Source: Alistipes sp. (GTDB lineage Bacteria > Bacteroidota > Bacteroidia > Bacteroidales > Rikenellaceae). From it: DNA of 64,000 nucleotides. The stretch covers positions 1 to 64,000 of the forward strand of contig JAFQAN010000023.1 in assembly GCA_017416915.1 (NCBI GenBank). Reading direction: 5' to 3'. The stretch's first letter is position 1; every line of letters starts with the position of its first letter. Both the position numbers and the translations under genes were made by a program. A model generated the notes under the pieces. It saw nothing but the letters and a program-made list of their open reading frames with translations. It was not told the DNA's origin and searched no databases. This document shows, one piece after another, positions 35,671 to 54,013 of this stretch.

Positions 35671-35796
35671 CTTGGTGTCAGAAGGGTGCCGAGTGCTACA
35701 CTCGGCAAAAATGCCGTCGATGGGTAGTACTTGAACGTACGTCCCATTGACGGCATTTTTTGTTAGGGGACGCAATCGACCCCTTATCACGCCAAG
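35671..35796 (-). repeat. Hairpin module A (3' of glnN)
   Basis: A 126-base module bounded by CTTGGTGTCAG and ATCACGCCAAG. It contains a GCCGAGTG hairpin, a 54-base palindrome (35707-35760: AAAAATGCCGTC... with inner GTAC-TTGAAC-GTAC), and a third AGGGG/CCCCT hairpin. Its right boundary is 6 bases from the glnN stop codon. The T-run on the minus strand lets it work as terminator for glnN. Confidence 0.85.
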
Positions 35797-35802
35797 TGCA
35801 AT

Positions 35803-37977
35803 TTATTTGAGGAACAACAACTCTCTATATTTAGGTAGGGGCCATAGCTGGTCATCGACAATCTCCTCCAACTTGTCAATATGATGACGTATCTGGTCGA
35901 GATATACCGCTACGGTGTCGTGGTAGGCTATCGCCTTGGCGCGCTGATCGTCAATGCGGTTGGCTACCTTGCGGCGCTCAATCATCTCGGCGGTGAGGCT
36001 CTGTATCTGCGCTGTGTGATGCTGTATGCGCTGTATAAGCTCGATGTCGGTTGTTGCCGATAAGCCCAACTCTTTGAGCTTCCACGCCTTATCGAGCAGA
36101 ATACCCTCATACTTCGAGGCGATAGGGATGATATTATTCATCGCTATATCGCCCAACACACGCGCCTCTATCTGTATCTTCTTGGTGTATGTCTCCCACT
36201 TTACCTCGGTACGCGCCTCGACCTCGACGGGTGTATAAACGCCCACCGAACGAAACATATCGATAGTCGTCTTATCCAGGTAGCGGTCGAAGATTAGCGG
36301 TGTGGAGGTCTCGCAGTCCAAGCCACGACGTGCCGCCTCCAAGCGCCACTCCTCCGAGTAGCCGTTGCCATCGAAGTGTATCGCCCGAGACTCCTTGATA
36401 AGGCGTTTGAGCACCTCGTATATCGCCTTCTCCTTGCGCATACCAGACTCAATCTTGGCATCTACATCGCGCTTGAAGCGATTTAGCTGCTCGGCGACGA
36501 TAGAGTTGATGACGATTACCGCCTCGGCGCAGTTTGCCGACGAACCCACAGCGCGGAACTCGAAACGGTTGCCCGTAAAGGCAAAGGGCGAGGTGCGGTT
36601 GCGGTCGGTATTATCCAAAAATATCGAGGGCAGATGTTGCACACCGCTCATCTTAAAGACGTTCTTGGCGTCGAAACGTATGGCATCCTCGCTCTTGCTG
36701 CGCTCCAACTTATCGAGTACGGTGGATAGCTGCGTACCGAGGAAGGTGGAGATGATGGCGGGAGGTGCCTCGTTAGCGCCCAAGCGATGCTCGTTTGTGG
36801 CGCTCATAATCGTCGCTTTGAGTAGTCCGTTGTGGCGATGTACTGCCGCAATGACATTCACCAGAAAGACGATGAATTGGAGATTCTCCTGCGGCGTACG
36901 CCCCGGACCGATAAGGTTTATGCCCGTGTCGGTACCTATCGACCAGTTGCAGTGCTTGCCCGAGCCATTGACGCCCTTGAAGGGCTTCTCGTGGAGCAGG
37001 ACACGGAAGTTGTGGCGACGTGCCACCTTGTCCATAATGGTCATCAGCAGCTGGTTATGGTCGTTGGCGAGGTTTGCCTCCTCATATACGGGAGCAAGTT
37101 CAAACTGGTTGGGCGCCACCTCGTTATGGCGTGTTTTTAGGGGTATGCCGAGCATCAGTGACTCATACTCCAAGTCGCGCATAAATGCCATAACACGCTC
37201 GGGGATAGCGCCAAAGTAGTGATCTTCGAGCTGCTGATTCTTCGCCGACTCGTGCCCCATTAGCGTACGCCCCGTGAGCATAAGGTCGGAGCGCACAGCC
37301 CACAAGCCCTCATCCACGAGGAAGTACTCCTGCTCCCAGCCCAAGTAGGTCTTCACACGGCTGACGCTCTTGTCGAAGTATTGACATACGGCGGTCGCGG
37401 CGCTGTCGATAGCTGCCAACGAGCGTAACAGAGGCATCTTATAGTCGAGCGCCTCGCCCGTGTATGATATAAATATGGTGGGGATACATAGTGTCGTGCC
37501 AACGATAAAGGCGGGCGATGCGGGGTCCCACGCCGAGTAGCCACGCGCCTCGAAGGTGTTGCGTATGCCCCCATTGGGGAATGACGAGGCGTCGGGTTCC
37601 TGCTGCACAAGCAGCTTACCCGAAAACTCCTCCAACACGCCTCCCCTACCGTCAGGCTCCGAGAAGGAGTCGTGCTTCTCGGCAGTACCTCCCGTCAGCG
37701 GCTGAAACCAGTGGGTGTAGTGGTCGGCTCCATTATCCAACGCCCATTGGCGCATACCCGCAGCGATGCTGTCGGCGATGTCCGCCGTGAGGGGCGTACC
37801 ACTCTCCATAGTGTCGATTAGCGCATCGTAGGTCTGACGATTGAGATACTTGCGCATCGCATTGCGCCCGAACACCTTACGACCGTAGTAGTCCGAGGGT
37901 TGTGAGGCGGGAGCATTAACGTCGATAGCTTTATTGTTGATGGCACGTTCGACCATTTTGAAACGTAATAGAGACAT
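35803..37977 (-). CDS. glnN: Glutamine synthetase, type III
   Basis: GlnN (724 residues) makes glutamine from glutamate, ammonia and ATP and is the large dodecameric GSIII found in Bacteroidota. Marks are the N-terminal YYGRKVFGRNAMRKYL, the substrate-binding KGVNGSGKHCNWSIGTDTG, and EVAPNQFELAPVYEEANLA. Length fits GSIII and excludes types I and II. It is transcribed alone from a -7 box at 38030-38038 and ends next to hairpin module A. Confidence 0.96.
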   Translation of the reverse strand: MSLLRFKMVERAINNKAIDVNAPASQPSDYYGRKVFGRNAMRKYLNRQTYDALIDTMESGTPLTADIADSIAAGMRQWALDNGADHYTHWFQPLTGGTAEKHDSFSEPDGRGGVLEEFSGKLLVQQEPDASSFPNGGIRNTFEARGYSAWDPASPAFIVGTTLCIPTIFISYTGEALDYKMPLLRSLAAIDSAATAVCQYFDKSVSRVKTYLGWEQEYFLVDEGLWAVRSDLMLTGRTLMGHESAKNQQLEDHYFGAIPERVMAFMRDLEYESLMLGIPLKTRHNEVAPNQFELAPVYEEANLANDHNQLLMTIMDKVARRHNFRVLLHEKPFKGVNGSGKHCNWSIGTDTGINLIGPGRTPQENLQFIVFLVNVIAAVHRHNGLLKATIMSATNEHRLGANEAPPAIISTFLGTQLSTVLDKLERSKSEDAIRFDAKNVFKMSGVQHLPSIFLDNTDRNRTSPFAFTGNRFEFRAVGSSANCAEAVIVINSIVAEQLNRFKRDVDAKIESGMRKEKAIYEVLKRLIKESRAIHFDGNGYSEEWRLEAARRGLDCETSTPLIFDRYLDKTTIDMFRSVGVYTPVEVEARTEVKWETYTKKIQIEARVLGDIAMNNIIPIASKYEGILLDKAWKLKELGLSATTDIELIQRIQHHTAQIQSLTAEMIERRKVANRIDDQRAKAIAYHDTVAVYLDQIRHHIDKLEEIVDDQLWPLPKYRELLFLK

Positions 37978-38468
37978 AAAAGTATTGGGATTAGTCTAAA
38001 AATAAATTATTTTTCATTTTTATCACACCACAAAGCTACGTCTATTTTATCGGACTTTTACAGAATTTGTCGTATTTTTATCAACATCTTATAAAAAACA
38101 GCACACTTTTTCCGAAAATAGGCTGTGAAATTATGGCATTTCCAGAAAAACACACCTAAATTTTCAGCAAATAGTAAAAATTCGCAATTTTGATTTTTGC
38201 ACAATTTTATTCTTTAATAGTAGAATTTTGGAGTATTCGCCTATAATAGAGTTTTACAAACAGGAAAAAGCCTCCAAAAAATTTGCTTTTCGCGGGGTTA
38301 TTTTGTAACTTTGTTGAGTTTTACGGGCGCGCATTGGCGCGTTAGCGCGAGGATACGACACTCGACGAGCAGATAGTAGCCTGATACAGAGCCGCCTCGC
38401 AACAACAAAACAGAGAATAACTAAGGTAAAATATCATTCACTTAAAACACTTAAACTCTAAAACAATT
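37978..38468. other. Divergent promoter region of glnN and mutA
   Basis: A 491-base AT-rich gap without a gene. It holds a -7 box for glnN on the minus strand (TAGCTTTGT, 38030-38038) and a promoter for mutA on the plus strand (38282-38314). The mutA leader of about 150 bases has a GC-rich stem-loop (GGCGCGTTAGCGCG region near 38335-38350). I looked for a cobalamin riboswitch because the downstream enzyme needs B12, but the conserved B12-box was not seen. Confidence 0.6.
38282..38314 (+). promoter_or_regulatory. Promoter of mutA-mutB
   Basis: TTTG (38282-38285), 20 bases, TAACTTTGT (38306-38314). The spacing is one base longer than the usual 19. Confidence 0.7.
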
Positions 38469-40319
38469 ATGGCTAATACCAAAGAAAAGTTGTTCACGGA
38501 GTTCCCACCAGTAAGCACTGAGCAGTGGGAGGCCGTCATCACAACTGACCTTAAAGGCGCAGACTATGAGCGCAAATTGGTATGGAAGACCGGTGAGGGT
38601 TTCAATGTAAAGCCCTACTATCGTGCTGAGAACCTTGCAGATGTAGAGTTCCTTGCAACTGAGGCCGGTGAATTCCCCTTCGTACGCGGTGTCCGCAACG
38701 ACAACACTTGGCGCGTACATCAGACTATCTCGGTTGAGTGTGCAGCAACTGCCAACCAGACAGCCTTGAAACTTCTCAACTCGGGCGTTGATTCGCTCGG
38801 CTTCTGCTTCTGCAAGAGCTGTGCTTGCGAGGTAGATGTCGATACGCTGTTGAAGGACATCGTTCCTACGGCTGTTGAGCTTACCTTCTGCGGCTCTAAC
38901 GTCAAGGGCTTGGCAGCATTGGCTGAGAAGGTTTTGGCGAAGTATGCCGACGTAGAGAAGGATGCTCTGCGTCTGAACTTCTGCATCGACCCCATTATGA
39001 AGAACCTCTCTACGGAGGGCGACTTCTGCTGCAAGACCGGCGACGAGTGCTTCGACATTATCGCCAAGCTCGTTAAAGCTACCGCCGACTACAAGCACGT
39101 ACGCGTAGTTAATGTATCAGGCTCGACCTTCTCGAACGCAGGTTCGACAATCGTCGAGGAGCTTGCCTTCACCCTGTCGGCAGCTCACGAGTACTTGGTT
39201 AAGCTTATGGAGCGCGGTCTGTCGATTGACGAGGCTGCTCGCAAGATTCGCTTTACCTTTGCCGTTACCTCTAACTACTTTATGGAGATGGCAAAGTTCC
39301 GTGCAGCACGTATGTTGTGGGCTAACATCGTTAAGACCTACAACCCTGCTAAGAACTGCGCTTGCAAGATGTTTGCACACGCCGTTACCTCGTCGTGGAA
39401 CCAGACCGTTTACGACCCCTATGTAAATATGTTGCGTGGCACTACCGAGGCTATGTCGGCAGCTATTGCTGGCGTACACTCATTGGAGGTATTGCCCTTC
39501 GACTACGCTTTCGAGGCTCCCACCGAGTTCTCTATGCGTATAGCTCGTAACTCGGAGCTTCTGTTGAAGTATGAGTCGCACTTCGACCAGGTTGTTGATC
39601 CCGCTGGTGGTTCTTACTTCATCGAGAGCCTTACCAAGAACATCGCAACCGAGGCTTGGGCGCTCTTCCGCGAGATTGAGGATAAGGGTGGCTACATCGA
39701 GGCATTCCGCTCGGGCGTTATCGTCGAGAAGGTTAAGGCTTCGGCAGCTCTCAAAGATAAGAACATCGCTACACGCCGTCTCATCCTGTTGGGTGCCAAC
39801 CAGTACCCCAACTTTACGGAGGTTGCCGACGCAGCTATCAGCGAGGAGTCGGTAACACGCAAGGCAGCCGAGGGTAACGTACTTGTTCCCTACCGTGGTG
39901 CTATGGCATTCGAGGCTATGCGCTTGAAGGTTGATCGTTCGGGCAAGGCGCCTAAGGCATTTATGCTCACTTGCGGCTCGTTGGCAATGGCTCGCGCTCG
40001 CGCACAGTTCTCTTGCAACTTCTTCGCTTGCGCAGGTATCCGCGTTCAGGACAACACCTTCTTCAAGTCTATCGAGGAGGGCGTAGAGGCAGCTTTGGCC
40101 TCTAAGGCAGAGATCGTTGTGGTATGTGCTTCGGACGATGACTACGCAGAGGCAGCTCCTAAGGTTAAGGCTCTGTTGGGCGACAAGGCTATCCTTGTTG
40201 TGGCAGGCGCTCCCGCATGCGCTCCCGAGTTGGAGGCCCAGGGCATTACCAACTTCATCAACGTCAAGAGCAACGTATTGGAGACCTTGAAGGATTATTT
40301 GAACAAGTTGGGTATTTAA
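38469..40319 (+). CDS. mutA: Methylmalonyl-CoA mutase small subunit
   Basis: This 616-residue subunit pairs with MutB to interconvert methylmalonyl-CoA and succinyl-CoA on the propionate route. It has the mutase barrel ([22 protein letters not shown] near the start, WAQ-like [21 protein letters not shown] later). The C-terminal cobalamin-like domain lacks the DxHxxG lower-ligand motif, as expected for the non-catalytic subunit. mutB begins 13 bases after the stop. Confidence 0.96.
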
Positions 40320-40332
40320 TCAGTTTGAAGCA

Positions 40333-42462
<2,130 letters not shown>

Positions 42463-42478
42463 TCACACTCTTCTATGG

Positions 42479-42558
42479 CTATGCTCGGCAGGCGAGCCTG
42501 CCGAGCATAGTTCCAAAAGCTGCCGCCATAGCGAGGTAAAACCTCTGCTATGGCGGCA
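42479..42558 (+). terminator. Two tandem terminator hairpins after mutB
   Basis: The first is a perfect 15-bp stem (42479-42510, CTATGCTCGGCAGGC with a two-base loop). The second (42521-42558) combines a 12-bp outer stem TGCCGCCATAGC and an inner GAGGT/ACCTC stem, then CTGCTTTTT. Confidence 0.85.
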
Positions 42559-42599
42559 CTGCTTTTTAGAGAGTGAAGGACGGAGAGATTACGTGACGA

Positions 42600-42699
42600 C
42601 AGGACTGAGAAAGGCTGGGTGCATTGTCAGCAACCACGAAAAAACACAGGCGTTCTCAGGCATTCTCAGTCGTTCTCAGTCGTGCGTGGCAGTGCGAGG
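42600..42699. repeat. Composite repeat locus B: flanking repeats
   Basis: A reduced copy: one CTGAGAAAGGCTGGG stretch on the left, no 8-base array beyond ACGACAGGAC, then AAAAAACACAGGC and inverted CATTCTCAG / CGTTCTCAG copies. The hairpin module follows at 42703-42807. Confidence 0.75.
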
Positions 42700-42702
42700 C
42701 GG

Positions 42703-42807
42703 CTTGTTGTCAGAGTGGTGCAGCAGTACCGCCGATAAAGAGATTGGGCTGGATGGATAGTACTTTGACGTACATTCGATTGAGGCGGCGCTGATGCGCC
42801 GCTATCA
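42703..42807 (-). repeat. Hairpin module B (3' of lipoprotein 1)
   Basis: The left boundary GCTTGTTGTCAGAGTGG is present; the right boundary has decayed to TATCACAAAA. Hairpin 1 has the core AGTACTTTGACGTAC but a weakened stem (GGATGGA / TTCGATT). Hairpin 2 is GCGGCGC-TGAT-GCGCCGC. The right end is 6 bases from the stop of the lipoprotein gene. Confidence 0.75.
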
Positions 42808-42813
42808 CAAAAA

Positions 42814-44736
42814 TTACAGGTATTTTGAGGCATCCGCTACCGCATTATGCTCCTTCTGCCAATCGAGGAAGAGCTGCGCATCACTCACACCATCACGCGT
42901 AACGGGGAAACGGTTGAGGAAGTGCTCCGAGTAGTTGCCATCCTCATCCTTAGCGATAGCGCCGATAACAGCCTCAGTATCATACTCGATTATTGTCCAA
43001 AGATAGTTGGGACGCTCGCCCCACCACAACATACGGCCAAGACGGTTTTCGTCGGTGAGCCACTCGGGGTCGCTATCGGGGGTCATACACCACGCATAGT
43101 AGTAGAGTGTTGCATCCTCATCGGTCGCCTCTATCTCAACGGGATAGGCGGCAAAGTCATTGGCATAGTCCATAAAGCCAAAAGAGGGGTCAAGAGCGTT
43201 TATCGCGGCAATATCGAAGTAGCCGATATGCTTGACGCTCACAGCAACCTGCGACTGCTCGTCGGGCAGGGTGGTAACCTCCTTGAAGAATATCTGCGTG
43301 GTAACAACGCCACCGTAGTAGCCGAAGGCGAAGAAGACGTAGCTCGTCTCGGGGGTCAGGTGGCGGTCGATACGCAACTCCTGATCGCCATAGCAGAAGT
43401 TCTCCTCGGTAAAGGTTGTCTGCTTGAAGATGCCGTCGAGGCGCGAGCTGTCGGTAACGCCAAAGCTATCCCAATTCTGCTTTGTGGTGTAGCCTATAAC
43501 GTAGCGGTCGGTAGTGTTGCTCGCAATAAAGAGTGCGCGGACGCCCACGGCAGTAAGATCGACGAAGCTGATGTCTATCTGTAACCCTGCCTGAGCCACC
43601 GCCTCCGTGCGGAATGTCTCGAAATCGGGCACCGAGGCGCATACAACGCCATCATTTACCGCCAACGCAAAGGCGTAGTATTCGGTATCGGCAAGCAGCT
43701 CGACACTCATCGAGTCGGTGCCATACGAGCAGTAGTTTTGTAGAATAAGGTATGCAGGAGTGCCATTTTTGGACATATCATCGGCAACGGTCTTGTTCCA
43801 CCACTGCTCGAAGAACTCCTCGGGAGTGCAGCCCAACTCGGCGCACTGCTCCTCGACGAGCGGACGGGGCATAACGTCGAAGTAGTAGGCTCCCGTATAG
43901 TCTTCGGGTGTCGCTGTGATGGTGGCATTAGGACCATCTACCGAGAAGTCGAAGTTGAACTCCACCTCGGTAAGTGCCTCCAACGAAGCAGCCTTGACGG
44001 TATATGTAGTCAGTTCGGAGATACGCTGACCCGTCGTCTTGTCGTAGTAGTAGCATAAGATGACAGCCTCGCCACCAGGTCTTAGACCGCTACACTTAAC
44101 GCCATACTGAGCGCCCTTTTTTGCCTTGCTGTCCAACAAGCTTTTGAGCGATGTACCGCCCAACCCCGCAAGGTACTCCTGATAACCGCGATGCTCCTCA
44201 TATAGTTTCTCGTTGCTATCGATGCCATTCTCGTTAAGGTAGTCCACCGAGTAGAGGTCCATAATGAAGTAGGTGTCGCCATTTGCGGGATAGACATCCA
44301 CCTTGCAGGCGTAGTAGCCCTGCTCTACGGTCTCGAAGGTAAAGGTGAAGTCCGAGGGGTCGCCCGCCTCCTGTGTTACGGTAAAGTAACCATCGTCGGC
44401 ATTGCGATAGGTCAGCTTTACGGTCGTCTCCCGCTCCTCGTCCACCTCGTTCTCAGCTACGACGAAGCGCACAACACCCGCCTCCGAGAGATCGAACTCG
44501 CCGATCCACTCCGCATCACACTGCGCTGTAACAACCTCACCCTCAATGGGGTTGGTAATGGTATAGTTTGCCGTATATTCGCCCCCTGACGAGTCGGCAA
44601 CGACGGTCGCCGTCTTGATGTTTATCTGAGACTTTGTGGTGGGGGTATCCACTTCGCCCGAATCATTACATCCTGCCACGAACACTACGCAGAGCATAAG
44701 CAGCATCGTTTGCCAAAGGGTCTTAATCTTATTCAT
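42814..44736 (-). CDS. BACON-like domain lipoprotein 1
   Basis: This 640-residue lipoprotein (signal to Cys23, MLCVVFVAGCNDSG) has an N-terminal BACON-like domain (about residues 35-125: SGGEYTANYTITNP, AEWIGEFDLSEAG, ETTVKLTYRNADD, YFTVTQEAG), then repeated beta-rich segments each ending in YYFDVM- or YYAFALAV-like strands. BACON domains are usually carbohydrate- or mucin-binding surface modules. It is paralogous to the protein at 51105-53219: same order of blocks (YPANGD, CAELGCTPEEFFE, DTEYYAFALAV, YVFFAFGYYGGVVTT). Probably a surface-exposed protein. Confidence 0.8.
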   Translation of the reverse strand: MNKIKTLWQTMLLMLCVVFVAGCNDSGEVDTPTTKSQINIKTATVVADSSGGEYTANYTITNPIEGEVVTAQCDAEWIGEFDLSEAGVVRFVVAENEVDEERETTVKLTYRNADDGYFTVTQEAGDPSDFTFTFETVEQGYYACKVDVYPANGDTYFIMDLYSVDYLNENGIDSNEKLYEEHRGYQEYLAGLGGTSLKSLLDSKAKKGAQYGVKCSGLRPGGEAVILCYYYDKTTGQRISELTTYTVKAASLEALTEVEFNFDFSVDGPNATITATPEDYTGAYYFDVMPRPLVEEQCAELGCTPEEFFEQWWNKTVADDMSKNGTPAYLILQNYCSYGTDSMSVELLADTEYYAFALAVNDGVVCASVPDFETFRTEAVAQAGLQIDISFVDLTAVGVRALFIASNTTDRYVIGYTTKQNWDSFGVTDSSRLDGIFKQTTFTEENFCYGDQELRIDRHLTPETSYVFFAFGYYGGVVTTQIFFKEVTTLPDEQSQVAVSVKHIGYFDIAAINALDPSFGFMDYANDFAAYPVEIEATDEDATLYYYAWCMTPDSDPEWLTDENRLGRMLWWGERPNYLWTIIEYDTEAVIGAIAKDEDGNYSEHFLNRFPVTRDGVSDAQLFLDWQKEHNAVADASKYL

Positions 44737-44766
44737 AATATTTAGGTTTTGTTATTTATCGAAAAA

Positions 44767-44848
44767 GCACTCATACAAAGTTAATATTTTTCATAGTGCT
44801 TATTTTGGTTTATATAGCAAAGTTAGTAATATTATCGAAAAACGCAAA
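44767..44848 (-). promoter_or_regulatory. Promoter region of lipoprotein 1, duplicated
   Basis: On the minus strand TTTG (44845-44848), 19 bases, TAACTTTGC (44817-44825) is a perfect promoter; a second -7 box TAACTTTGT lies at 44775-44783. The region is a near copy, in permuted order, of 45705-45786. It retains an ATGAAAAAT start like that of the DUF1566-like gene, followed at once by a stop. Confidence 0.7.
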
Positions 44849-44984
44849 ACCTAATCGCAGATATTGTACTGAAGAGGCAGATTAATGCAGTGAAGATAGA
44901 GATATTCAGCAGTGTTCCCATTCGGGGATTTGATTGAAGCGTCGATAAGCGCCACTTTTTGCATCATTACCTGAACAAAAAAAA

Positions 44985-45008
44985 TCCTCGCGCCCCAAAG
45001 CGCGAGGA
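44985..45008 (-). terminator. Terminator of the DUF1566-like gene
   Basis: Stem TCCTCGCG / CGCGAGGA with loop CCCCAAAG; on the minus strand eight T follow directly. It lies 40 bases after the stop codon. Confidence 0.85.
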
Positions 45009-45048
45009 GAAAGAGTAAAGCTGTGGTCGCAACCGACAAGCCTAAATC

Positions 45049-45711
45049 TTAAAAAGCTGAGACAGCGCGCACAGAGTTGGGGTAGTACTTACTGCCGATG
45101 GGGATGGCGCGACTGCTCATAACGACAATCCACACGCAAAACTTAGGGTCATCTTCATACTCCGTTGACGACCAATAATAACCTTTTATCAGTTCAGCAT
45201 TGTATTCAGCCAATGTGGAATTAATTGCTGAATTATTACTGTTTATGGCTATTAACTCATCAAAAGCTGGCAGATACCAATCTGCACCCTTATTGCGACA
45301 CCAAACAAAGGCGAGATATTGGTCGCTATCTCCTCGCTGCATCACCTTATCTGTATTCGCCTTGCCATCGCTCTTATTTGTCAAACCTAATGCAATTCCC
45401 TTATCAGATTGCTCATGAGTACACCACTGCAAAACTGTTTTATCTAAACTAACTATCTTGCCATGACGACCATTATCCCAAACCTCGAAGACAACACCCT
45501 GCTTGCCATTCTCGTTGTAGTAGTCTCCAACCTTGTAAGGGGCTGTTGTATCCTGGTGTGCGCAGGGTTGTGTAACATTAATAGTTAAATGTTGGTCGCA
45601 ATACTCGTGGTCGTTAATAGTGTAAGACGGTGTGCGTTGTGCAGAGGCATCGCTAATGGTGCTCGTTAGCATAACGCCTACGAGTGTTAATAGAAGATAG
45701 ATATTTTTCAT
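45049..45711 (-). CDS. Secreted DUF1566-like protein
   Basis: This 220-residue protein has a signal peptide (MKNIYLLLTLVGVMLTSTISDASAQ). The C-terminal half matches the DUF1566/Lcl-C pattern: FVWCRNKGADWYLPAFDEL, then GYYWSSTEYEDD and a final RAVSAF. The first half includes GKQGVVFEVWDNGRHGKIVSL, typical of related Bacteroidetes surface proteins with a C-type-lectin-like fold. Its function is unknown. Its start codon and upstream 75 bases are repeated in front of lipoprotein 1. Confidence 0.75.
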   Translation of the reverse strand: MKNIYLLLTLVGVMLTSTISDASAQRTPSYTINDHEYCDQHLTINVTQPCAHQDTTAPYKVGDYYNENGKQGVVFEVWDNGRHGKIVSLDKTVLQWCTHEQSDKGIALGLTNKSDGKANTDKVMQRGDSDQYLAFVWCRNKGADWYLPAFDELIAINSNNSAINSTLAEYNAELIKGYYWSSTEYEDDPKFCVWIVVMSSRAIPIGSKYYPNSVRAVSAF

Positions 45712-45786
45712 AGTGCTTATTTTGGTTTATTTAACAAAGTTAGTAATATTATCGAAAAGCACTCATACAAAGTTAATATTTTTCTT
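45705..45786 (-). promoter_or_regulatory. Promoter region of the DUF1566-like gene
   Basis: Contains two -7-like boxes on the minus strand, TAACTTTGT at 45734-45742 and at 45767-45775. It shares about 75 bases with 44767-44848, the two halves being in swapped order. Confidence 0.6.
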
Positions 45787-45836
45787 GGGATTATGCACAC
45801 AGAGGCAAAGTTTTTTCATCAAACTAAAATTTATAC

Positions 45837-45845
45837 TATCTTTGC
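45837..45845 (+). promoter_or_regulatory. -7 box of the small lipoprotein gene
   Basis: TATCTTTGC matches TAnnTTTGY, 40 bases before the ATG at 45885. Confidence 0.55.
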
Positions 45846-45884
45846 ACCCGACACGTTATAATTAGGAACTAAAACTTTGATGAT

Positions 45885-46343
45885 ATGAAATTTATAAAAC
45901 TGCTGATTGCTGCCGTGGCACTCTTTACCGCCGCAGCGTGCGAGGAGGAGATTCCCGAGAAGAAGTTGGAGACGCTCGATAACATCGAACTCACCGACTG
46001 GTACTGCACTGGCGAGAAGTCGGAGGGCGTATATATCTATTACACACTATCTTTCGGCGCCGAGGGTCAAGGTACGCTGACAGGCTACGACGCCAAAGAG
46101 GATGGCAATGTGGAGAGCATCGAGACATTTACCTATACCCATACACGCAACAACAACGACATCGCCGTAACACTCCTTTTCACCGACGGCGACACCTATG
46201 CAGGGTATGTCATCCCGAAGGGAGCTATCACGGTGGACTACAAGGATGTCTTCGTATTGCAGCTCTTCAAAGTCGATGAAGATGGTATGCCTATTGAGGA
46301 TATGTATGGCAACTACGATACGATGATGTTCTGGAAAGAGTAA
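45885..46343 (+). CDS. Small hypothetical lipoprotein
   Basis: This 152-residue protein has a lipoprotein signal (LLIAAVALFTAAACEEE, Cys20). The mature part has alternating beta-strands (LTDWYCTGEK, YYTLSFGAEGQGTLTGYD, IAVTLLFTDGDTYAGYV) like lipocalin-type small lipoproteins of Bacteroidales. Function is unknown. It is transcribed alone in front of rpsA. Confidence 0.7.
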   Translation: MKFIKLLIAAVALFTAAACEEEIPEKKLETLDNIELTDWYCTGEKSEGVYIYYTLSFGAEGQGTLTGYDAKEDGNVESIETFTYTHTRNNNDIAVTLLFTDGDTYAGYVIPKGAITVDYKDVFVLQLFKVDEDGMPIEDMYGNYDTMMFWKE

Positions 46344-46404
46344 CTACGTGTAGCAAAAATAGATACGACTGACATCGGGAGGTGCTTTTTTTTAGGCAAA
46401 TCTC

Positions 46405-46436
46405 TTTGTCAGTCATTTTTTTTTGCTTACCTTTGC
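46405..46436 (+). promoter_or_regulatory. Promoter of rpsA
   Basis: TTTG (46405-46408), exactly 19 bases, TACCTTTGC (46428-46436): a perfect consensus promoter. The leader to the ATG at 46545 is about 100 bases. Confidence 0.85.
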
Positions 46437-46544
46437 AGTCCCTATGTGCGTACGCGCGTACCTTCAGTATAAAGCACCGCGCATAAGGATTAACCAATTT
46501 ATTAACTTTTAACGAGCGATTGTATCGCAAAACTTATTTCCATT

Positions 46545-48329: not shown

Positions 48330-48351
48330 TTGCGATAACACGCATAGCGTG

Positions 48352-48379
48352 AAGGCTGTCGGTTTTTGCCGACAGCCTT
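48352..48379 (+). terminator. Terminator of rpsA
   Basis: An 11-bp stem AAGGCTGTCGG / CCGACAGCCTT with a TTTTTG loop, followed by TTATTATAT. Confidence 0.85.
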
Positions 48380-48439
48380 TTATTATATATATTATATAGG
48401 TATGGCGTGGCGTTGCGATAGGTTGCACACGATAAATGA

Positions 48440-48760
48440 GTCGACTGAGAATGGCTGAGAGGGGCGCGCCAACAAGACGACGGGACTGCGAGACTGCGAG
48501 ACAACAAGTCCGCGAGACGACGAGACCGCGGGATAACGAGACTACGAGTCCGCGAGACGACGAGAACACCAGACCACGAGTCCGCGGGATAACGAGACTA
48601 CGAGTTCGCGGGACAACAAAAAAAATGCGGGCATCGCCCGCAATATCCCGAAGTCCCGAAGTCCCAAAGTCCCGTCGTCCCGAAGTCCCCTGAAAAACAC
48701 AGTCTTTCTCAGCCATTCTCAGCCATTCTCAGTCATTCTCAGTCGTTCTCAGCCGTGCGT
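48440..48760. repeat. Composite repeat locus C: inverted 8-base arrays
   Basis: After a short CTGAGAATGGCTGAGAG stretch and GGCGCGCC come 18 direct 8-base units (48471-48614, NNCGRGAC). A perfect hairpin TGCGGGC-ATC-GCCCGCA (48626-48642) follows, and then six units of the same 8-mer in inverse orientation (48645-48692, GTCCCGAA type). Inverted CATTCTCAG repeats close the block. This copy is therefore largely palindromic. Confidence 0.85.
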
Positions 48761-48789
48761 GGCAGCTCGCTATCGAACGTGGTTGATTA

Positions 48790-48950
48790 GTGAATTTAGG
48801 GAAATTAGGGAGTTTAGGGATGTGCGGGCGATGCCCGCTACAAACCAAGTATCTGACGTCATACCGCTAAATCGAGCGGCGCGCTCCCGAGCCTCTCTAA
48901 ATTCTCTAATCTCACTAAACTCCCTAATAACTGCGCGCTATCGCCACGCT
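48790..48950. repeat. Second inverted tandem repeat in locus C
   Basis: GAATTTAGGGAAATTAGGGAG-like 9-base repeats (about 48791-48819) face their complements CTCTAAATTCTCTAA and CTAAACTCCCTAA (about 48895-48932). In between lies a GCGGGC-GAT-GCCCGC hairpin. No gene is visible here. Confidence 0.6.
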
Positions 48951-48963
48951 CCCAAGCGAGATT

Positions 48964-49091
48964 GCTTGGCGTCAGAGTGGTGCAGATGTGGTGCCAAGTC
49001 GAAGTTTGGCTGGATGGGGGTGTACTTGGGCGTACATCCCCATTCAGACGAACGAGCTTGGTGCCGCAGATGCGCCGCTATCACGCCAAGC
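48964..49091 (-). repeat. Hairpin module C1
   Basis: This is the best preserved copy: perfect 9-base terminal inverted repeats GCTTGGCGT (48964-48972) and ACGCCAAGC (49083-49091). Hairpin 1 pairs TGGATGGGGGTGTAC with GTACATCCCCATTCA around TTGGGC (49011-49046). Hairpin 2 is the GCCGCAGATGCGCCGC segment before CTATCACG. Confidence 0.85.
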
Positions 49092-49106
49092 TAAAAGCAA
49101 AAAAAG

Positions 49107-49185
49107 AAGCACCACGGAACAGTACTTGACGTACAGCCCGTGGTGCTTTACGGTTGGGATGTGCCGCAGATTGCGGCTTATCTCA
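49107..49185 (-). repeat. Hairpin module C2 (3' of the OmpA-family gene)
   Basis: A shorter module lying directly after C1. Hairpin 1 is an 11-bp stem AAGCACCACGG (49107-49117) paired with 49138-49148, with the core AGTACTTGACGTAC in its loop. Hairpin 2 is GCCGCA-GAT-TGCGGC. The end TATCTCA lies 3 bases from the stop of the OmpA-family gene. Confidence 0.8.
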
Positions 49186-49188
49186 AAA

Positions 49189-50391
49189 TTACTTGATTAC
49201 TACGCAACGGTTAGTCTTAGGAGCGTGAGGATCCTCGAACGCCTTAACGGTGTCGCCCTTCCAGTCAACAGTGATGCGGTCCTCAGCTACGCCATTCTCA
49301 ACGAGGAATGCCTTAACGTTCTCAGCGCGCTCCTTAGAGAGACGCTCGTTCCAAGTAGGATTACCTGTCTCCTTATCAGCGTAACCAGTAACGGTAAGCT
49401 TAGCGTTGGTATCCTTAACCAAAGCGATGTAGCTCTCCAAAGTAGCCTTAGTGTAACCAGTGAGGTTAGACTTGTCGATGTTGAAGAATACTACGGTCTC
49501 GGGAGCAACCTCCTCAACAACCTTAGCGTTCTTGCACTCCTCAAGCTCCTTGCGCAAGTTATCGTTCTCGCCGTCGAGATCGTTAATCTTGTTGTTAGCG
49601 TCGCCGAGCTTGTTGTTAGCGTCGTTGAGCTTGTTGTTTAAGTCATCAACAACAGCGATGTAGCCGTCGATGTCGCTCTGAGTGTAAGCACGGTTCCAGT
49701 CGCGCTTGTTGAAGCGGTAAGCAACACCTACTGATGCAGAGAAGGTGCAAGCATAAGTACCACCGTTCTTAATCTCAGGTGCGAGAGCCTCCTCGGGCAA
49801 TACCCAAGTGCGGAGGTCGAGCTGGATGTCGAGCTGCTTGCAAACGCGGAACTTGTTCAATAAACCGAAAGTAGTAGCGAACTCACCATCGTAAGACTTG
49901 ATAGAGTCCTTAGTCCAAGTCATAGCGGTATAACCGAAACCTACGTAAGGAATAGCGTAGTAAACGCGATCCTCACGGTAGCCACCAATCCAGTTAGACA
50001 AGTTTACAAGAACATCACCGTGAACAAATACATAGGGGGTCTGGAAGAGATCGCCACCATATACAGAGGGGTTGTTCGAGTAGTTCTGGTACTGACCGCC
50101 ATCGAGCTGCAAGCGCATACCGACGATAGGCACGAACCACTTAGTTACAGCGAAGTTAGCGTTCCAGCTGTTACGATCAAAGAACTTACCAGGATCGCCA
50201 TCGCCCTTAACCTTGGTATTAACATCGAGATAAGAGCTACCGAAGCCAGCAGAAATCTCCCAGTTATCCCAGAACTTGTTTGTCTCATGACCCTTCCAAC
50301 GGAGCTTCTCGCTCTTAGTCTCCTGAGCCATCACATTCGTAGAAGCCAAAGCAAATACGGCTACTAACAAAGATAATAGAACTTTTTTCAT
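49189..50391 (-). CDS. OmpA-family outer-membrane protein
   Basis: This 400-residue protein has a signal peptide (MKKVLLSLLVAVFALASTNVMAQ), an N-terminal eight-strand barrel region (about 35-235, WEISAGFGSSYLDVN to SASVGVAYRFNKRDWNRAY), a heptad coiled-coil linker (LNNKLNDANNKLGDANNKI, about 255-290) and a C-terminal OmpA domain (TVVFFNIDKSNLTGYTKATL, VTGYADKETGNPTWNERLS, NRCVVIK) that binds peptidoglycan. It ties the outer membrane to the wall. Codon use suggests high expression. Confidence 0.92.
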   Translation of the reverse strand: MKKVLLSLLVAVFALASTNVMAQETKSEKLRWKGHETNKFWDNWEISAGFGSSYLDVNTKVKGDGDPGKFFDRNSWNANFAVTKWFVPIVGMRLQLDGGQYQNYSNNPSVYGGDLFQTPYVFVHGDVLVNLSNWIGGYREDRVYYAIPYVGFGYTAMTWTKDSIKSYDGEFATTFGLLNKFRVCKQLDIQLDLRTWVLPEEALAPEIKNGGTYACTFSASVGVAYRFNKRDWNRAYTQSDIDGYIAVVDDLNNKLNDANNKLGDANNKINDLDGENDNLRKELEECKNAKVVEEVAPETVVFFNIDKSNLTGYTKATLESYIALVKDTNAKLTVTGYADKETGNPTWNERLSKERAENVKAFLVENGVAEDRITVDWKGDTVKAFEDPHAPKTNRCVVIK

Positions 50392-50469
50392 GTTGTTTTA
50401 ATTAAAATTTATATTACACTTTTTCTTCCTATTCAGCCGACATCTCGACATTTTTACACATTTGGACTG

Positions 50470-50478
50470 ACAAATATA
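50470..50478 (-). promoter_or_regulatory. -7 box of the OmpA-family gene
   Basis: On the minus strand TATATTTGT matches TAnnTTTGY, 79 bases before the ATG. The surrounding leader is very AT-rich. Confidence 0.5.
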
Positions 50479-50639
50479 CAAATAATATACAAATAAACCA
50501 CACTTTTATACTTTTTTTTACTCTTTCGCGCCATTTTTTACGCATCTATGGGTAGATATGGTATAAATATATGCGATTTAGGAAGTTGCAATGACGCAGA
50601 ACAGCAAGACTACAAGCAGCTAAGAGGGCGGCGCGATTG

Positions 50640-50820
50640 GCTGGGAAAGACTGAGAACGCCTGAGAATGACTGAGAATGACTGGGTGGCGCGCCAACGAG
50701 ACTGCGAGACGACGGAACTGCGGGACGACGAGACCGCGGGACTACGGGACTACGAGACTGCGAGACTGCGAGAACACTTAAAAACCCAGGCGTTCTCAGG
50801 CATTCTCAGTCGTTCTCAGC
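50640..50820. repeat. Composite repeat locus D: flanking repeats and 8-base array
   Basis: Four CTGAGAAYGMC repeats on the left, GGCGCGCC, ten 8-base units (50695-50774, NNCGRGAC), AAAAACCCAGGC, then CGTTCTCAGGCATTCTCAG copies in the inverse orientation. Two hairpin modules follow. Confidence 0.85.
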
Positions 50821-50841
50821 TGCGCGTGGCAGTGCGTGGTA

Positions 50842-50968
50842 GCTTGGGCGTCAGAGTGGTGCAGATGTGGTGCCAAGTCGAAGTTTGGCTGGATGGGGGT
50901 GTACTTGGCGTACATCCCCATTCAGACGAACGAGCTTGGTGCCGCAGATGCGCCGCTATCACGACAAG
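50842..50968 (-). repeat. Hairpin module D1
   Basis: Nearly identical to module C1, with GCTTGGGCGTCAGAGTGG on the left, hairpin 1 with GGGGTGTAC-TTGGC-GTACATCCCC, and ACGACAAG on the right. Confidence 0.8.
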
Positions 50969-50969
50969 A

Positions 50970-51097
50970 GCTTGGCGTCAGAAGGGCGCCGAGTGCTACA
51001 CTCGGCAAAAATGCCGTCGATGGGTAGTACTAAGGCGTACGTCCCATTGACGGCATTTTTTGTTAGGGGACGCAATCGACCCCTTATCACGTCAAGC
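50970..51097 (-). repeat. Hairpin module D2 (3' of lipoprotein 2)
   Basis: Nearly identical to module A, except for the loop (GTAC-TAAGGC-GTAC). The large palindrome spans 51007-51060. Terminal repeats are GCTTGGCGT and ACGTCAAGC. Its right end is 7 bases from the stop of lipoprotein 2. Confidence 0.85.
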
Positions 51098-51104
51098 TAA
51101 GTGG

Positions 51105-53219
51105 CTACTCTCTTGCTACCAAACAATCAACTGGCAACTTCTTCTCACCCTCTGCGATAGTGGTAAGAGAGTGCTTCTTACCGCTCTTCTTTGCAGGGGC
51201 AACAGCCTGTGCCTGTGAAAGTGCAGGAAGCTCAACGGGAGTGTTGTCATAAACTGCACTTGGCACCAAAGCATTAGACTTGTTCTGCTGATCATAGAAC
51301 CACTCTGCGAAGATAGAGCCATCAGGATTTGCACCCTCGATAGTAGGCTCAAAAATCCTCTCATAGATACTTGTGTAGTAACCATCTGTATCCAATGCCA
51401 TTGCCCAAGTGTATGATTCAAGACCTGCTGATGCCATACTTACGTGCAGATATGGCGACATTGGACCATCGTTAAGAACCATCTTCACAATATTCTCGGG
51501 ACTATTCCATTCAGAAGGAGCTGAGGGGTTCTCAATCCAGTTAGTGAAGAAGAAGCTCTGCAACATCGATGGATCTGAGAAAGTTACCTCAAATGGAGCT
51601 ACAAATGGATAGTCTGTGTAGTTATCGAAGAAGTCTGCCACATAAGCATCGCTAGCCTTGATAGCATCGATGTGGAAATAGCCCAACTCCTCATTTACGA
51701 TAAGCTTCATATGCGACTCACGATCCTCCAATGTTGAGAAGGTTGTAGAGAAGAGGTCGGTAGTAACCACACCACCGCGGTAACCAAATGCGAATACTAC
51801 GTACTCAGTAGCGGGATCGAAATACACGGGAGCCTCGTCCTCGGAAGCTCCTGGATAGTAAGTGCTATCGCCACTAAGCACCGCTGGAGCTTCCATTGTA
51901 CTGAGCAAGCCCTGAAGCTTCTGATTATCAGTAGAGCCAAGGCTATCCCAATATTCCTTAGTAACGTAACCAGCAATATAAGGATCGTCATTTACGGTCT
52001 TCCACATAATCTTAGCCGACATTGTGGTAATATCCTGTACTATGATTACAAACTCGTTATCAGACATCTCAACAGGATCAGTCTTTACAACCTCAAAGAC
52101 AGGCACTGTCGCACACAAACCCTCCTCGGTTACAGCAAACGCATAGAGATAGTACTCAGTGTCTGAGAGACAGTCGAAGGTGTAGTCATCGCTAACATAC
52201 GAGCAGAACTCTTGAATATAACCAGCAGCAGTATAACTGCTGTTAGAAAGTCTATTAGCAACAAAAGTGTTGTTATAAAGCTCAAAGTAGCGAGCAGGCT
52301 CTATACCGAGCTGCGCACACTCCGAATCAACAATTGACTTCTGGAAAACATCGAAATAGAATGCATCGAGATATGTAGTAGGAGCCGTTACTGTAGCAGT
52401 AAGCTCATTCTGATCGACAGAGGTCTCGAAGGTAAAGTCCATATCGCTCAGAGGTACCTTAGCGGTAGTGAACTTGAAGCGATAGATGTCCGAAAGACGC
52501 TCGCAAGTATCGATATCGTAGTAATAAGCAATCAGGTAGTAGTCCGACTCAGGTGCCAAGCCCGTAGGCTCTACGTCATAGCTATTACCCCACTTTGCAC
52601 GAGCCTCAGCCACGTCCTTCCACGAGATACCATTCCAATAGCCAAGAGCCTGGAAGTACTCCACCTCATACTGGAACAGAGCCTCATCGGTCTGCAAGTT
52701 GTTTGCCTCAATCTCAGCGGGAGTATAGATACCATAGATGTATGCCAAATCGCTGTTGGCAGGATAGACGTCTAATACGCACGAGAGATACTTCTGCTCA
52801 GTAACCTCTATCTCGAAGGTAAGGTCCTGGTTCATAGCAGCCGCCTGCTTAACGGTAAATGTCTTCTTCTCAGCACCCTTGTAGCTTACGTCCACGGTAG
52901 TCTCACGAGGGGTCTCCGCAGAGTTACGCTCAACGCTAAACTTGATAACACCCGGGGTAGCAACGTCGATGTCAGATACCCAATCCTCAGCAGGCACAAC
53001 AGTAACATTCTCGCCCTCAATGGGGTTAGTGAGAGTGTAGTTCACGGTGTAGTCGCCACCATTAGCTGAGGCATTAACAGTCTCGCTTTTGAGGTTGATT
53101 GTAACATCACCTGGGTTTGGAGCTGGCTCTGGCTCAGGCTCATCGTTGTTACAACCTACAAAAATGAACACGCTCAACAAGGGGAGCAATGCCCACAACA
53201 TTTTTGAAAGTTTGTTCAT
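51105..53219 (-). CDS. BACON-like domain lipoprotein 2
   Basis: This 704-residue lipoprotein (MLWALLPLLSVFIFVGCNNDEPEPEP, Cys23) has an acidic Pro-Glu linker, a BACON-like domain (about 40-130: NGGDYTVNYTLTNPIEGE, ETTVDVSYKGAEKKTFTVKQ) and long beta-rich repeats paralogous to lipoprotein 1 (CAQLGIEPARYFELY, DTEYYLYAFAVTEEG, YVVFAFGYRGGVVTT). It is about 64 residues longer, mainly at the C-terminus, which ends in a basic KKSGKKHSL segment. It is probably surface-exposed. Confidence 0.8.
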   Translation of the reverse strand: MNKLSKMLWALLPLLSVFIFVGCNNDEPEPEPAPNPGDVTINLKSETVNASANGGDYTVNYTLTNPIEGENVTVVPAEDWVSDIDVATPGVIKFSVERNSAETPRETTVDVSYKGAEKKTFTVKQAAAMNQDLTFEIEVTEQKYLSCVLDVYPANSDLAYIYGIYTPAEIEANNLQTDEALFQYEVEYFQALGYWNGISWKDVAEARAKWGNSYDVEPTGLAPESDYYLIAYYYDIDTCERLSDIYRFKFTTAKVPLSDMDFTFETSVDQNELTATVTAPTTYLDAFYFDVFQKSIVDSECAQLGIEPARYFELYNNTFVANRLSNSSYTAAGYIQEFCSYVSDDYTFDCLSDTEYYLYAFAVTEEGLCATVPVFEVVKTDPVEMSDNEFVIIVQDITTMSAKIMWKTVNDDPYIAGYVTKEYWDSLGSTDNQKLQGLLSTMEAPAVLSGDSTYYPGASEDEAPVYFDPATEYVVFAFGYRGGVVTTDLFSTTFSTLEDRESHMKLIVNEELGYFHIDAIKASDAYVADFFDNYTDYPFVAPFEVTFSDPSMLQSFFFTNWIENPSAPSEWNSPENIVKMVLNDGPMSPYLHVSMASAGLESYTWAMALDTDGYYTSIYERIFEPTIEGANPDGSIFAEWFYDQQNKSNALVPSAVYDNTPVELPALSQAQAVAPAKKSGKKHSLTTIAEGEKKLPVDCLVARE

Positions 53220-53294
53220 TGTTAAAATTGTTTTAAGTTATTGTTAATAAATGTATTAGCCTCATCAATATAAACACACTATACTCTTTATACT

Positions 53295-53303
53295 GCAAAT
53301 ATA
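53295..53303 (-). promoter_or_regulatory. -7 box of lipoprotein 2
   Basis: On the minus strand TATATTTGC matches TAnnTTTGY, 76 bases before the ATG. Confidence 0.5.
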
Positions 53304-53431
53304 CGAAATAAAACATAAAAAACAATAGTTATGGCTATTTTTTTTGACAACTTTTAGGTAGGGTTAGGGTTATGCAGAGAGAAGTTTCGCAACTGTAAAA
53401 GAACGAGTAAGATTAAGTAGGGCGCACGATT

Positions 53432-53880
53432 GACTGGGAAAAACTGAGAATAACTGGGAACGACTGAGAATAACTGGGAACGACTGGGAACGACTGGGAA
53501 GCGCGCCTACGAGACGGCGGGACGACGGGACTGCGAGACCGCGGGACTGCGGGACTACGAGACGGCAGGACGACGGGACTGCGAGACTGCGGGACCGCGG
53601 GACCGCGGGACGACGAGACTGCGGGACCACGGGACCGCGGGACCACGGGACCACGGGACCGCGAGACCGCGAGACCGCGGGACGACGGGACTGCGAGACC
53701 GCGAGACCGCGAGACGGCGGAACGACGAGACTGCGAGACCGCGAGACCGCGAGACCGCGGGACGACGAGACTGCGAGACGACGGGACTACGAGACGGCGG
53801 GACGACGAGACTACTGAAAAACCCAGGCGTTCTCAGGCGTTCTCAGCCATTCTCAGGCGTTCTCAGTCATTCTCAGCTGT
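53432..53880. repeat. Composite repeat locus E: 38-unit 8-base array
   Basis: Left flank: alternating ACTGGGAA and ACTGAGAA units (53432-53500). Then GCGCGCC and the largest array, 53508-53811, exactly 304 bases or 38 units of NNCGRGAC. The first two bases of each unit vary (GA, TG, CG, TA, GG, CA) while CG-R-GAC is kept in almost every unit. AAAAACCCAGGC and inverted CGTTCTCAG copies follow (53816-53878). Confidence 0.9.
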
Positions 53881-53888
53881 GCGTGGCA

Positions 53889-54013
53889 GCTTGGCGTCAG
53901 AGTGGTGCAGCAGTACCGCCGATAAAGAGATTGGGCTGGATGGATAGTACTGAGCGTACATTCCATTCAGCCCAATGATTGAGGCGGCGCTGATGCGCCG
54001 CTATCACGACAAG
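53889..54013 (-). repeat. Hairpin module E (3' of nrdJ)
   Basis: Terminal segments GCTTGGCGTCAG and ACGACAAG. Hairpin 1 (53930-53976) pairs ATTGGGCTGGATGGA with TTCCATTCAGCCCAAT around AGTACTGAGCGTAC, and hairpin 2 is GCGGCGC-TGAT-GCGCCGC. The right end is 6 bases from the nrdJ stop. It is the intact form of module B. Confidence 0.85.

What the first reader, a model, noticed from the sequence alone, without database searches (positions are those of the whole stretch)
35671..54013. A family of structured modules fixed to the 3' ends of minus-strand genes
Seven modules of about 105-130 bases (C2 shorter) lie at 35671-35796, 42703-42807, 48964-49091, 49107-49185, 50842-50968, 50970-51097 and 53889-54013. 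Seen: ends CTTGGCGT...ACGCCAAG, then two hairpins. In all five loci the nearest module ends 3-7 bases beyond the stop codon of a gene on the minus strand (glnN, lipoprotein 1, ompA-like, lipoprotein 2, nrdJ), always in the same orientation. Unrelated genes sharing such an exact placement suggests a 3'-UTR RNA element (terminator, processing or stability signal) or a repeat that inserts at terminators. I know of no named class that matches.
Basis: partly seen in the sequence, partly recalled or inferred. Interest (0 to 1): 0.8.

Follow-up and report, generated by a model that had tools for sequence, protein, structure and literature searches.

The report
Stop-codon-anchored hairpin repeats in Alistipes
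A gut bacterium carries scores of copies of a 125-base hairpin-forming repeat that mostly sits right behind the stop codons of unrelated genes and points along the direction of DNA replication; it resembles the known REP repeats in style but is far larger, and no enzyme that moves it was found.

Summary
The window's modules belong to a high-copy repeat family of this Alistipes genome. In 788 kb (40% of the genome) there are 79 modules in 55 arrays. 42 of 55 arrays start -13 to +19 nt from a same-strand stop codon (35 within 0-20 nt; random intergenic placement by that criterion: mean 2.8, maximum 10). 52 of 55 point with the leading strand as judged by GC3 skew, although genes are about balanced; 29 of 70 convergent and 0 of 70 divergent junctions are occupied. 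At one orthologous stop codon some species carry a module and others a plain terminator. A covariance model finds the family in 38 of 60 other Alistipes genomes; a broader one finds cousins in 27 of 383 other genomes of the order. The element is a rod-like hairpin with covarying stems that folds best on the strand OPPOSITE to the preceding gene. No Rfam family matches; no REP transposase or integron integrase was found. Best reading: REP-like non-autonomous mobile repeats that settle at gene ends, some subtypes taking over terminator duty. Movement and function are inferred; no RNA data were available.

The parts
35671..35796 (-). module, subtype A, behind glnN
   Evidence: R1 99.6 bits; 33 further places at 94% identity or more over at least 78 nt in this genome
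42703..42813 (-). module, subtype D (internally shortened), behind lipoprotein-like gene 42814-44736
   Evidence: R1 72.2 bits
48964..49091 (-). module, subtype B, downstream of the truncated E copy
   Evidence: R1 106.6 bits
49107..49185 (-). 3'-truncated module, subtype E (terminator-like), behind OmpA-like gene 49189-50391
   Evidence: alignment to G004 copy; fold
50842..50968 (-). module, subtype B, second in tandem array
   Evidence: R1 93.8 bits
50970..51097 (-). module, subtype A, first in tandem array behind gene 51105-53219
   Evidence: R1 98.4 bits
53889..54013 (-). module, subtype D, behind nrdJ-like gene 54020-56593
   Evidence: R1 110.7 bits
35532..35612 (-). octamer array of the tail behind module A
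   Evidence: TRF period 8
42647..42683 (-). decamer array of the tail
   Evidence: TRF period 10
48484..48754 (-). octamer and decamer arrays of the tail (48484-48617, 48646-48689, 48706-48754)
   Evidence: TRF
50641..50819 (-). tail: decamers 50787-50819, octamers 50697-50773, inverted decamers 50641-50683
   Evidence: TRF
53432..53876 (-). tail: decamers 53824-53876, octamers 53513-53811, inverted decamers 53432-53500
   Evidence: TRF
35803..37977 (-). host gene: type III glutamine synthetase (glnN)
   Evidence: Pfam GSIII_N
42814..44736 (-). host gene: BACON-domain protein
   Evidence: Pfam
49189..50391 (-). host gene: OmpA family
   Evidence: Pfam
51105..53219 (-). host gene: BACON-like (below the curated cut-off)
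   Evidence: Pfam
54020..56593 (-). host gene: ribonucleotide reductase large chain
   Evidence: Pfam

Best explanation
A family of REP-like, non-autonomous mobile repeats. Each unit is a ~125-nt imperfect hairpin: a rod with an outer stem, a small interior loop near its base, in many copies a 2x2 G.A loop about nine pairs further in, and an apex closed by GTAC/GTAC. The unit spreads by an unidentified trans-acting enzyme that acts on the folded single strand opposite to the preceding gene (inferred from the strand-specific G.T pairing). It is found at and directly behind stop codons, chiefly of genes transcribed with the replication fork and at convergent gene ends, where the host tolerates it, helped by subtypes (A above all, which stands first in 26 of 28 mixed arrays) that bring a terminator-like hairpin and T-run in the mRNA sense. 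Units pile up in ordered arrays with short tandem-repeat tails. Shown: copy number, placement, orientation, covariation, strand asymmetry, differences in occupancy between species, taxonomic spread. Inferred: mobility through a folded single strand, the cause of the replication polarity, terminator duty. Not explained: why the join is so exactly at the stop codon.
For: Copies: 118 in 78 arrays in 69 fetched islands of the own genome; 19 of those 78 arrays lie within 60 nt of a contig end, as repeats that break assemblies do. Placement and orientation. Relative G064, 302 kb: all 13 arrays found start -10 to +4 nt from a same-strand stop; 10 of 13 point with the positive-skew strand although genes are 95 + and 136 -. 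Other Alistipes loci: first module 1-17 nt behind a same-strand stop in 19 of 26 loci (my count). Occupancy: 34 reciprocal-best orthologue pairs G000/G064, module in one only in 6, in both in 1, in neither in 27; phosphofructokinase orthologues in 30 genomes, module at the stop in 8 by eye (G082 among them, whose last codons differ), one doubtful (G065), short hairpins in the other 21. Structure: RNAalifold on 24 copies under 80% alike, opposite strand -32.7 kcal/mol, 35 pairs, 25 with compensatory changes; gene strand -20.0, 24 pairs, 14. Strand: with a structure chosen on Watson-Crick pairs only, 88 G.T against 30 C.A cells on the opposite strand (866 Watson-Crick, 103 other), 20 of 24 sequences G.T-rich, 2 C.A-rich, 2 ties; opposite strand folds lower in 117 of 131 copies, mean difference -15.8 kcal/mol against -5.5 (sd 4.2) for shuffles.
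Against: No enzyme was found: Y1_Tnp 0 of 26 genomes; reverse transcriptase in 6 of 15 module-rich and 5 of 11 module-free genomes and not in the own genome; other transposase families were not searched. No closely related filled/empty pair was available, so exact insertion boundaries and a target duplication were not seen. The exactness at the stop codon is not expected of simple insertion plus tolerance. The folding strand lies on the leading-strand template, not on the lagging-strand template where a single-strand transposon would be expected to jump (recalled). 13 of 55 arrays break the stop rule and 3 of 55 the polarity. In the wider cousins 21 of 40 copies lie behind a same-strand stop by a crude ORF call, 19 do not.
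Confidence: 0.55

Rival explanations
1. Functional 3'-UTR/insulator RNA element: the repeat is kept because it ends transcription of the preceding gene and, read from the other side, folds into a very stable hairpin that stops or trims antisense read-through from the convergent gene exactly at the neighbour's stop codon.
For: 29 of 70 convergent junctions occupied against 22 of 458 tandem and 0 of 70 divergent; the fold faces the gene on the far side, whose stop points at the array in 39 of 54 arrays with a gene there. T-run after the apical hairpin in subtype A, a short one in D. Distant cousins: in 25 of 38 copies with a gene on that side it points at them (my count).
Against: 15 of 42 stop-anchored arrays have no convergent partner; occupancy differs between orthologues; leading-strand orientation also holds for 8 of 8 arrays whose 5' neighbour is on the opposite strand, which a gene-end function does not predict; subtype B lacks a T-run.
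Confidence: 0.27
2. Folded single-strand recombination sites that work like integron attC sites, used by an unknown tyrosine recombinase.
For: Similar size (attC of Vibrio about 120 nt, recalled), position behind stop codons, folding of the strand opposite to the gene, and that strand on the leading-strand template, as reported for chromosomal integrons (PMC11023631, passages).
Against: No attC R-box consensus at either end (consensus recalled; ends); integron-integrase model above its cut-off in 0 of 15 genomes, only partial tyrosine-recombinase hits of a kind that also ring in 14 of 14 control genomes (no control exceeds the cut-off either, so there was no positive control); the host genes looked at are core genes scattered over the chromosome, not a cassette array.
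Confidence: 0.06
3. Polar chromosome-organisation or replication-transcription conflict sequence (in the manner of gyrase-binding BIMEs or FtsK-orienting motifs, recalled), kept because it is polar along the replichore.
For: 52 of 55 arrays in one orientation relative to the mean GC3 skew in six stretches.
Against: Sequence differs between species of one genus; no match in 22 of 60 other Alistipes genomes at the threshold used; polarity weaker in G064 (10 of 13); such motifs need not sit at stop codons.
Confidence: 0.08

Closest known systems
REP / BIME repeats (GTAG- and CGTC-tagged palindromes; PMC3733652, passages seen)
   Same: High-copy extragenic palindromes, mainly between convergent or unidirectional genes, often touching or supplying the stop codon, G.T pairing in stems, clusters; CGTC repeats also lack a dedicated transposase.
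   Different: About 125 nt instead of 20-40; no GTAG or CGTC end tag shared across species; head-to-tail arrays in one orientation; conserved interior loops; fold stronger on the strand opposite to the gene; orientation follows replication; no RAYT-type Y1_Tnp in 26 genomes.
Integron attC sites (PMC11023631, passages seen)
   Same: Behind stop codons (recalled), bottom-strand folding, folding strand on the leading-strand template.
   Different: No R boxes, no integron integrase above cut-off, no cassette array, core genes as hosts.
Intrinsic terminators, and palindromic Bacteroidetes candidate RNAs of PMC8040213 (passages seen; four named there, 80-132 bp)
   Same: Hairpin near gene ends; subtypes A and E carry a T-run; similar length to some of those candidates.
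   Different: Repeated, covarying rod; subtype B without T-run; orthologous genes elsewhere use short hairpins. The sequences of those candidates are in supplements that could not be opened here, so whether one of them is this family was not tested.
Group IIC introns (recalled)
   Same: Favour gene ends/terminators and replication polarity.
   Different: No reverse transcriptase match in the own genome; intron structure was not looked for.

Membership tests
REP/BIME | palindromic unit of 20-40 bp | tested here: not met
   units of about 112-130 nt
REP/BIME | high copy, extragenic, 3' of genes, convergent/unidirectional junctions | tested here: met
REP/BIME | GTAG or CGTC tag at one end | tested here: not met
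   ends differ between species: CTTGGCG, TTTGTTG, TTTCTTG and others
REP/BIME (GTAG) | RAYT (Y1_Tnp) in the genome | tested here: not met
   0 of 26 Alistipes genomes; control rings in 5 of 14 named genomes
REP/BIME | G.T pairs in the stem | tested here: met
integron attC | R boxes RYYYAAC / GTTRRRY at the ends | tested here: not met
   end sequences read by eye against the recalled consensus
integron attC | integron integrase in the genome | tested here: not met
   TIGR02249 over cut-off in 0 of 15; no positive control among the 14 control genomes
integron attC | bottom strand folds and is on the leading-strand template | tested here: met
   (leading strand judged from mean GC3 skew, no origin mapped)
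intrinsic terminator | GC hairpin followed by T-run in the mRNA sense | tested here: inconclusive
   A 34/36, D 31/31 by a loose pattern (TCTTT), B 3/33; the simple scan calls none of the modules
intrinsic terminator | transcripts end there | not testable with these tools
   no RNA-seq
known Rfam family | match to a covariance model | tested here: not met
   no match on a module in the window at gathering scores, nor in 20 further loci up to E 1
MITE | target duplication and matching transposase | tested here: inconclusive
   junctions are palindromic (AATT, AGCT), so a duplication cannot be told from the stem; only Y1 and RT families searched

The most novel reading that the evidence does not exclude
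An order-wide Bacteroidales class of strand-specific folded elements (about 110-130 nt, conserved rod with interior-loop and apex motifs) that is mobilised as a folded single strand by an unknown recombinase or transposase and, in Alistipes, is delivered precisely to stop codons of genes co-directional with replication, that is, a second, non-integron system that uses folded DNA strands as recombination substrate.
Probability: 0.15. Interest if true: 0.88.

Novelty: new variant of a known kind. Interest (0 to 1): 0.7.

Why it matters
It is an abundant structured repeat in a common gut genus (matches in 38 of 60 other genomes sampled), without an Rfam match, that often ends contigs (19 of 78 arrays) and adds structured sequence to the 3' ends of core genes. 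The exact join to the stop codon, the fold on the opposite strand and the replication polarity make clear, testable predictions about transcript ends and about what moves it. If a trans-acting enzyme is found, it would open a new folded-strand mobile system; if not, it is a striking case of recurrent replacement of gene ends.

Tried and rejected
Looked for a REP transposase, a reverse transcriptase and an integron integrase: none explains the family. Considered chance similarity (rejected), gene-strand bias as the cause of uniform orientation (rejected: 315 co-directional against 289 head-on genes), an attC identity (defining features not met), and a kink-turn/box C-D reading of the GTGATA...CTGA loop (from memory, not tested, not claimed). 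A coding origin was not pursued. Rfam with a permissive threshold gave only hits elsewhere in locus L374 and one in L375, none on a module. R1 and R2 score higher on the opposite strand at each place listed on both strands, but they were built on that strand, so this was not used as evidence. The simple terminator scan found 17 sites against 15.0 in shuffles and none on a module. Intergenic GC skew, modules but not tails left out, had the sign opposite to the assigned leading strand in four of six stretches (C20, C5, C21, C7); the tails are strongly skewed themselves, which I think explains it, but I did not test that. The tail of decamers and octamers was counted but not explained. Gene calls in my scripts are ORF-based with a hexamer score, not a curated annotation. 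One search scored at most 57 candidates per genome and at most 9, so copy numbers there are lower bounds.
Full report
What was checked. The genes are unrelated: glutamine synthetase III, two BACON-like genes (the second below the curated cut-off), an OmpA-family gene and a ribonucleotide reductase. Aligning the seven shows three full-length subtypes, which I call A, B and D, and a truncated one, E. E (49107-49185) is a 3'-truncated member of a subtype found whole in relative G004.

Genome-wide. The twenty best glnN relatives in the named collection are titled Alistipes (18) or Rikenellaceae (2), at 76-80% amino-acid identity, so I place it in Alistipes. Searches with A, B and D gave dozens of near-identical copies. 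In 69 fetched islands there are 118 copies in 78 arrays, and 19 of the 78 arrays lie within 60 nt of a contig end. For a count not drawn from hits I took five whole contigs and the window (788 kb, 40% of the genome) and searched them with a covariance model: 79 modules, 55 arrays. 42 of 55 arrays start -13 to +19 nt from a same-strand stop; 35 of them lie 0-19 nt behind it. Placing 55 arrays at random in intergenic DNA, with 0-20 nt behind a same-strand stop as the criterion, gives a mean of 2.8 and a maximum of 10 in 2000 draws. Against the rule: 13 of 55 arrays (two at contig ends without a 5' neighbour, three 75-445 nt away, one of these with the E copy in between, and eight with an opposite-strand 5' neighbour).

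Replication polarity. Genes are roughly balanced on the five contigs (for example 80 + and 70 - on C20, 58 + and 82 - on C5) and 31 - and 15 + in the window. I judged the leading strand from GC skew at third codon positions, averaged over genes of the two strands: the mean is +0.08 on C20 and C17 and -0.06 to -0.08 on the other four stretches. The two gene strands agree in sign in five of six (on C7 they differ, and on C5, C21 and the window the minus-strand genes are near zero). 52 of 55 arrays have the module's gene-sense on the strand so assigned. The intergenic skew does not support the assignment: its sign is opposite in four of six stretches, perhaps because of the skewed tails. No origin was mapped. 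Independently of the skew, orientation is nearly uniform on each contig (12 of 13, 13 of 14, 5 of 5, 7 of 7, 7 of 7, 8 of 9). Stop codons of co-directional genes are occupied in 39 of 315 cases, of head-on genes in 3 of 289 (Fisher P 7e-9). The eight arrays with an opposite-strand 5' neighbour keep the polarity (8 of 8). The three exceptions sit 0, 0 and 7 nt behind head-on genes. Occupied junctions: convergent 29 of 70, tandem co-directional 14 of 242, tandem head-on 8 of 216, divergent 0 of 70. In relative G064 (302 kb of one contig) all 13 arrays found sit at stops, 10 of 13 in the positive-skew direction, so polarity is weaker there.

Occupancy between species. Of 34 reciprocal-best orthologue pairs between 432 kb of this genome and 302 kb of G064, seven carry a module in at least one species and only one in both. 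At the phosphofructokinase stop codon in 30 genomes, 8 carry a module (by eye; G082's last codons differ from the query), one (G065) a doubtful diverged hairpin, and the other 21 a short hairpin roughly 10-40 nt behind the stop; the subtype differs between carriers. Most of 24 glnN loci printed from the named collection also show a short hairpin, by eye. Among 80 glnN loci R2 finds two: A. montrealensis kh20 right behind glnN (E 1.3e-5) and an apex-only match about 110 nt behind glnN in a Rikenellaceae record (E 9e-5).

Structure and strand. In carriers of the genus the outer stem is species-specific but pairs in nearly every copy, and it begins at the stop codon (TAA|TTTGTTG ... CAACAAATT and the like). 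On 24 copies less than 80% alike, the strand opposite to the gene gives a consensus of 35 pairs, 25 with compensatory changes (-32.7 kcal/mol), against 24 pairs, 14 with such changes, and -20.0 on the gene strand. With a structure chosen by Watson-Crick pairs alone, which favours neither strand, the opposite strand shows 88 G.T and 30 C.A cells, with 103 other mismatches. Single-copy folds agree (117 of 131); shuffles with the same dinucleotides explain about a third of the difference (-5.5 of -15.8 kcal/mol). The sequences are related, so these cells are not independent. The window copies are more stable than their shuffles on both strands (z -2.7 to -8.0 on the gene strand, -3.2 to -11.3 on the other).

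Range. Model R1 hits 39 of 61 Alistipes genomes including the own and weakly 3 of 197 other genomes of the order. The six loci looked at from those three were the same rod with other letters; the two G088 loci do not sit behind a same-strand stop. A model including four of them, R2, hits 28 of 384 genomes (27 besides the own) in 17 families by the tool's labels, the own family included; several of these are weak (best E 1e-4 to 1e-6 in a few genomes) and the E-values are rough. Of 40 cousins fetched from nine genomes, the opposite strand folds lower in 38 (one tie at the printed rounding, one the other way); 21 of 40 lie behind a same-strand stop by a crude ORF call (-25 to +60 nt) and 19 do not. 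So tight stop anchoring is a trait of Alistipes and perhaps some others, not of the whole class. R2 includes members found by R1, so its hits extend rather than independently test the class.

Composite. In this genome 48 of 54 arrays with enough downstream sequence are followed by decamers (CTGRGAA core), 40 by octamers (GTCYCGNN), and 20 by inverted decamers after the octamers; the 40 octamer runs near modules are all on the module's strand, five runs are elsewhere; no such runs occur in the 302 kb of G064. Arrays are ordered: A stands before B/D in 26 of 28 arrays that hold both (from the 78 arrays).

Reading. Near-identical copies, species-specific ends, patchy presence at orthologous stops and contig breaks speak for spreading repeats. 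Placement behind stops, preference for convergent junctions and G.T pairing are features reported for REPs (PMC3733652, passages), which makes REP-like repeats the nearest kind, but size, end tag, lack of RAYT, array orientation, strand-specific fold and polarity set them apart. The parallel with attC sites (opposite-strand fold, that strand on the leading template; PMC11023631, passages) is worth a test but membership fails. The T-run after the apical hairpin in A (34 of 36), the short one in D (31 of 31 by a loose pattern) and its lack in B (3 of 33) suggest that some units serve as terminators; this is inference. E. coli REPs close to stop codons are said to stall ribosomes (recalled, no call).

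Print and databases. No match in Rfam 15 on any module. Paper searches for Alistipes or Bacteroidetes/Bacteroidales, or for REPs at stop codons (two of them returned nothing), showed in titles, abstract starts and the passages I saw no description of this family. PMC8040213 (passages) names palindromic candidate RNAs of 80-132 bp in Bacteroidetes whose sequences I could not compare, so the family may be among them unnamed. The library holds only open-licence PMC papers.

Noticed in passing
window 48484-48754, 50641-50819, 53432-53876, 35532-35612: Tails of period-10 and period-8 repeats, with inverted period-10 repeats closing the octamer block in some; units differ mainly by transitions (CTGAGAA/CTGGGAA, GTCTCG/GTCCCG). 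11 of 77 decamer runs in 788 kb are not within 900 nt of a module.
   Followed up: partly
window 44763-44841 and 45690-45784: Two stretches near the starts of two minus-strand genes are nearly identical (69 nt at 90%, 30 nt at 100%).
   Followed up: no
window 15197-15478: Tandem repeats of period 21 and 24.
   Followed up: no
G000 C21:23581, C20:168400, C11:9514, C5:46300 and others: Short 5' remnants of a module (such as CTTGGCGTGATAG) stand directly before an intact module, as if hairpins had been lost by slippage or new units had landed in old ones.
   Followed up: no
L340-L353 (G403, G249): In these genomes the copies are followed on their gene-sense side by a second hairpin (CAATCTTGC...GCAAGATTG) that I did not see behind the Alistipes modules (by eye).
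   Followed up: no
L317, L321 (G088 C20:24229-24578): Two cousins 225 nt apart, nearly alike with nearly alike flanks, do not sit behind a same-strand stop.
   Followed up: no
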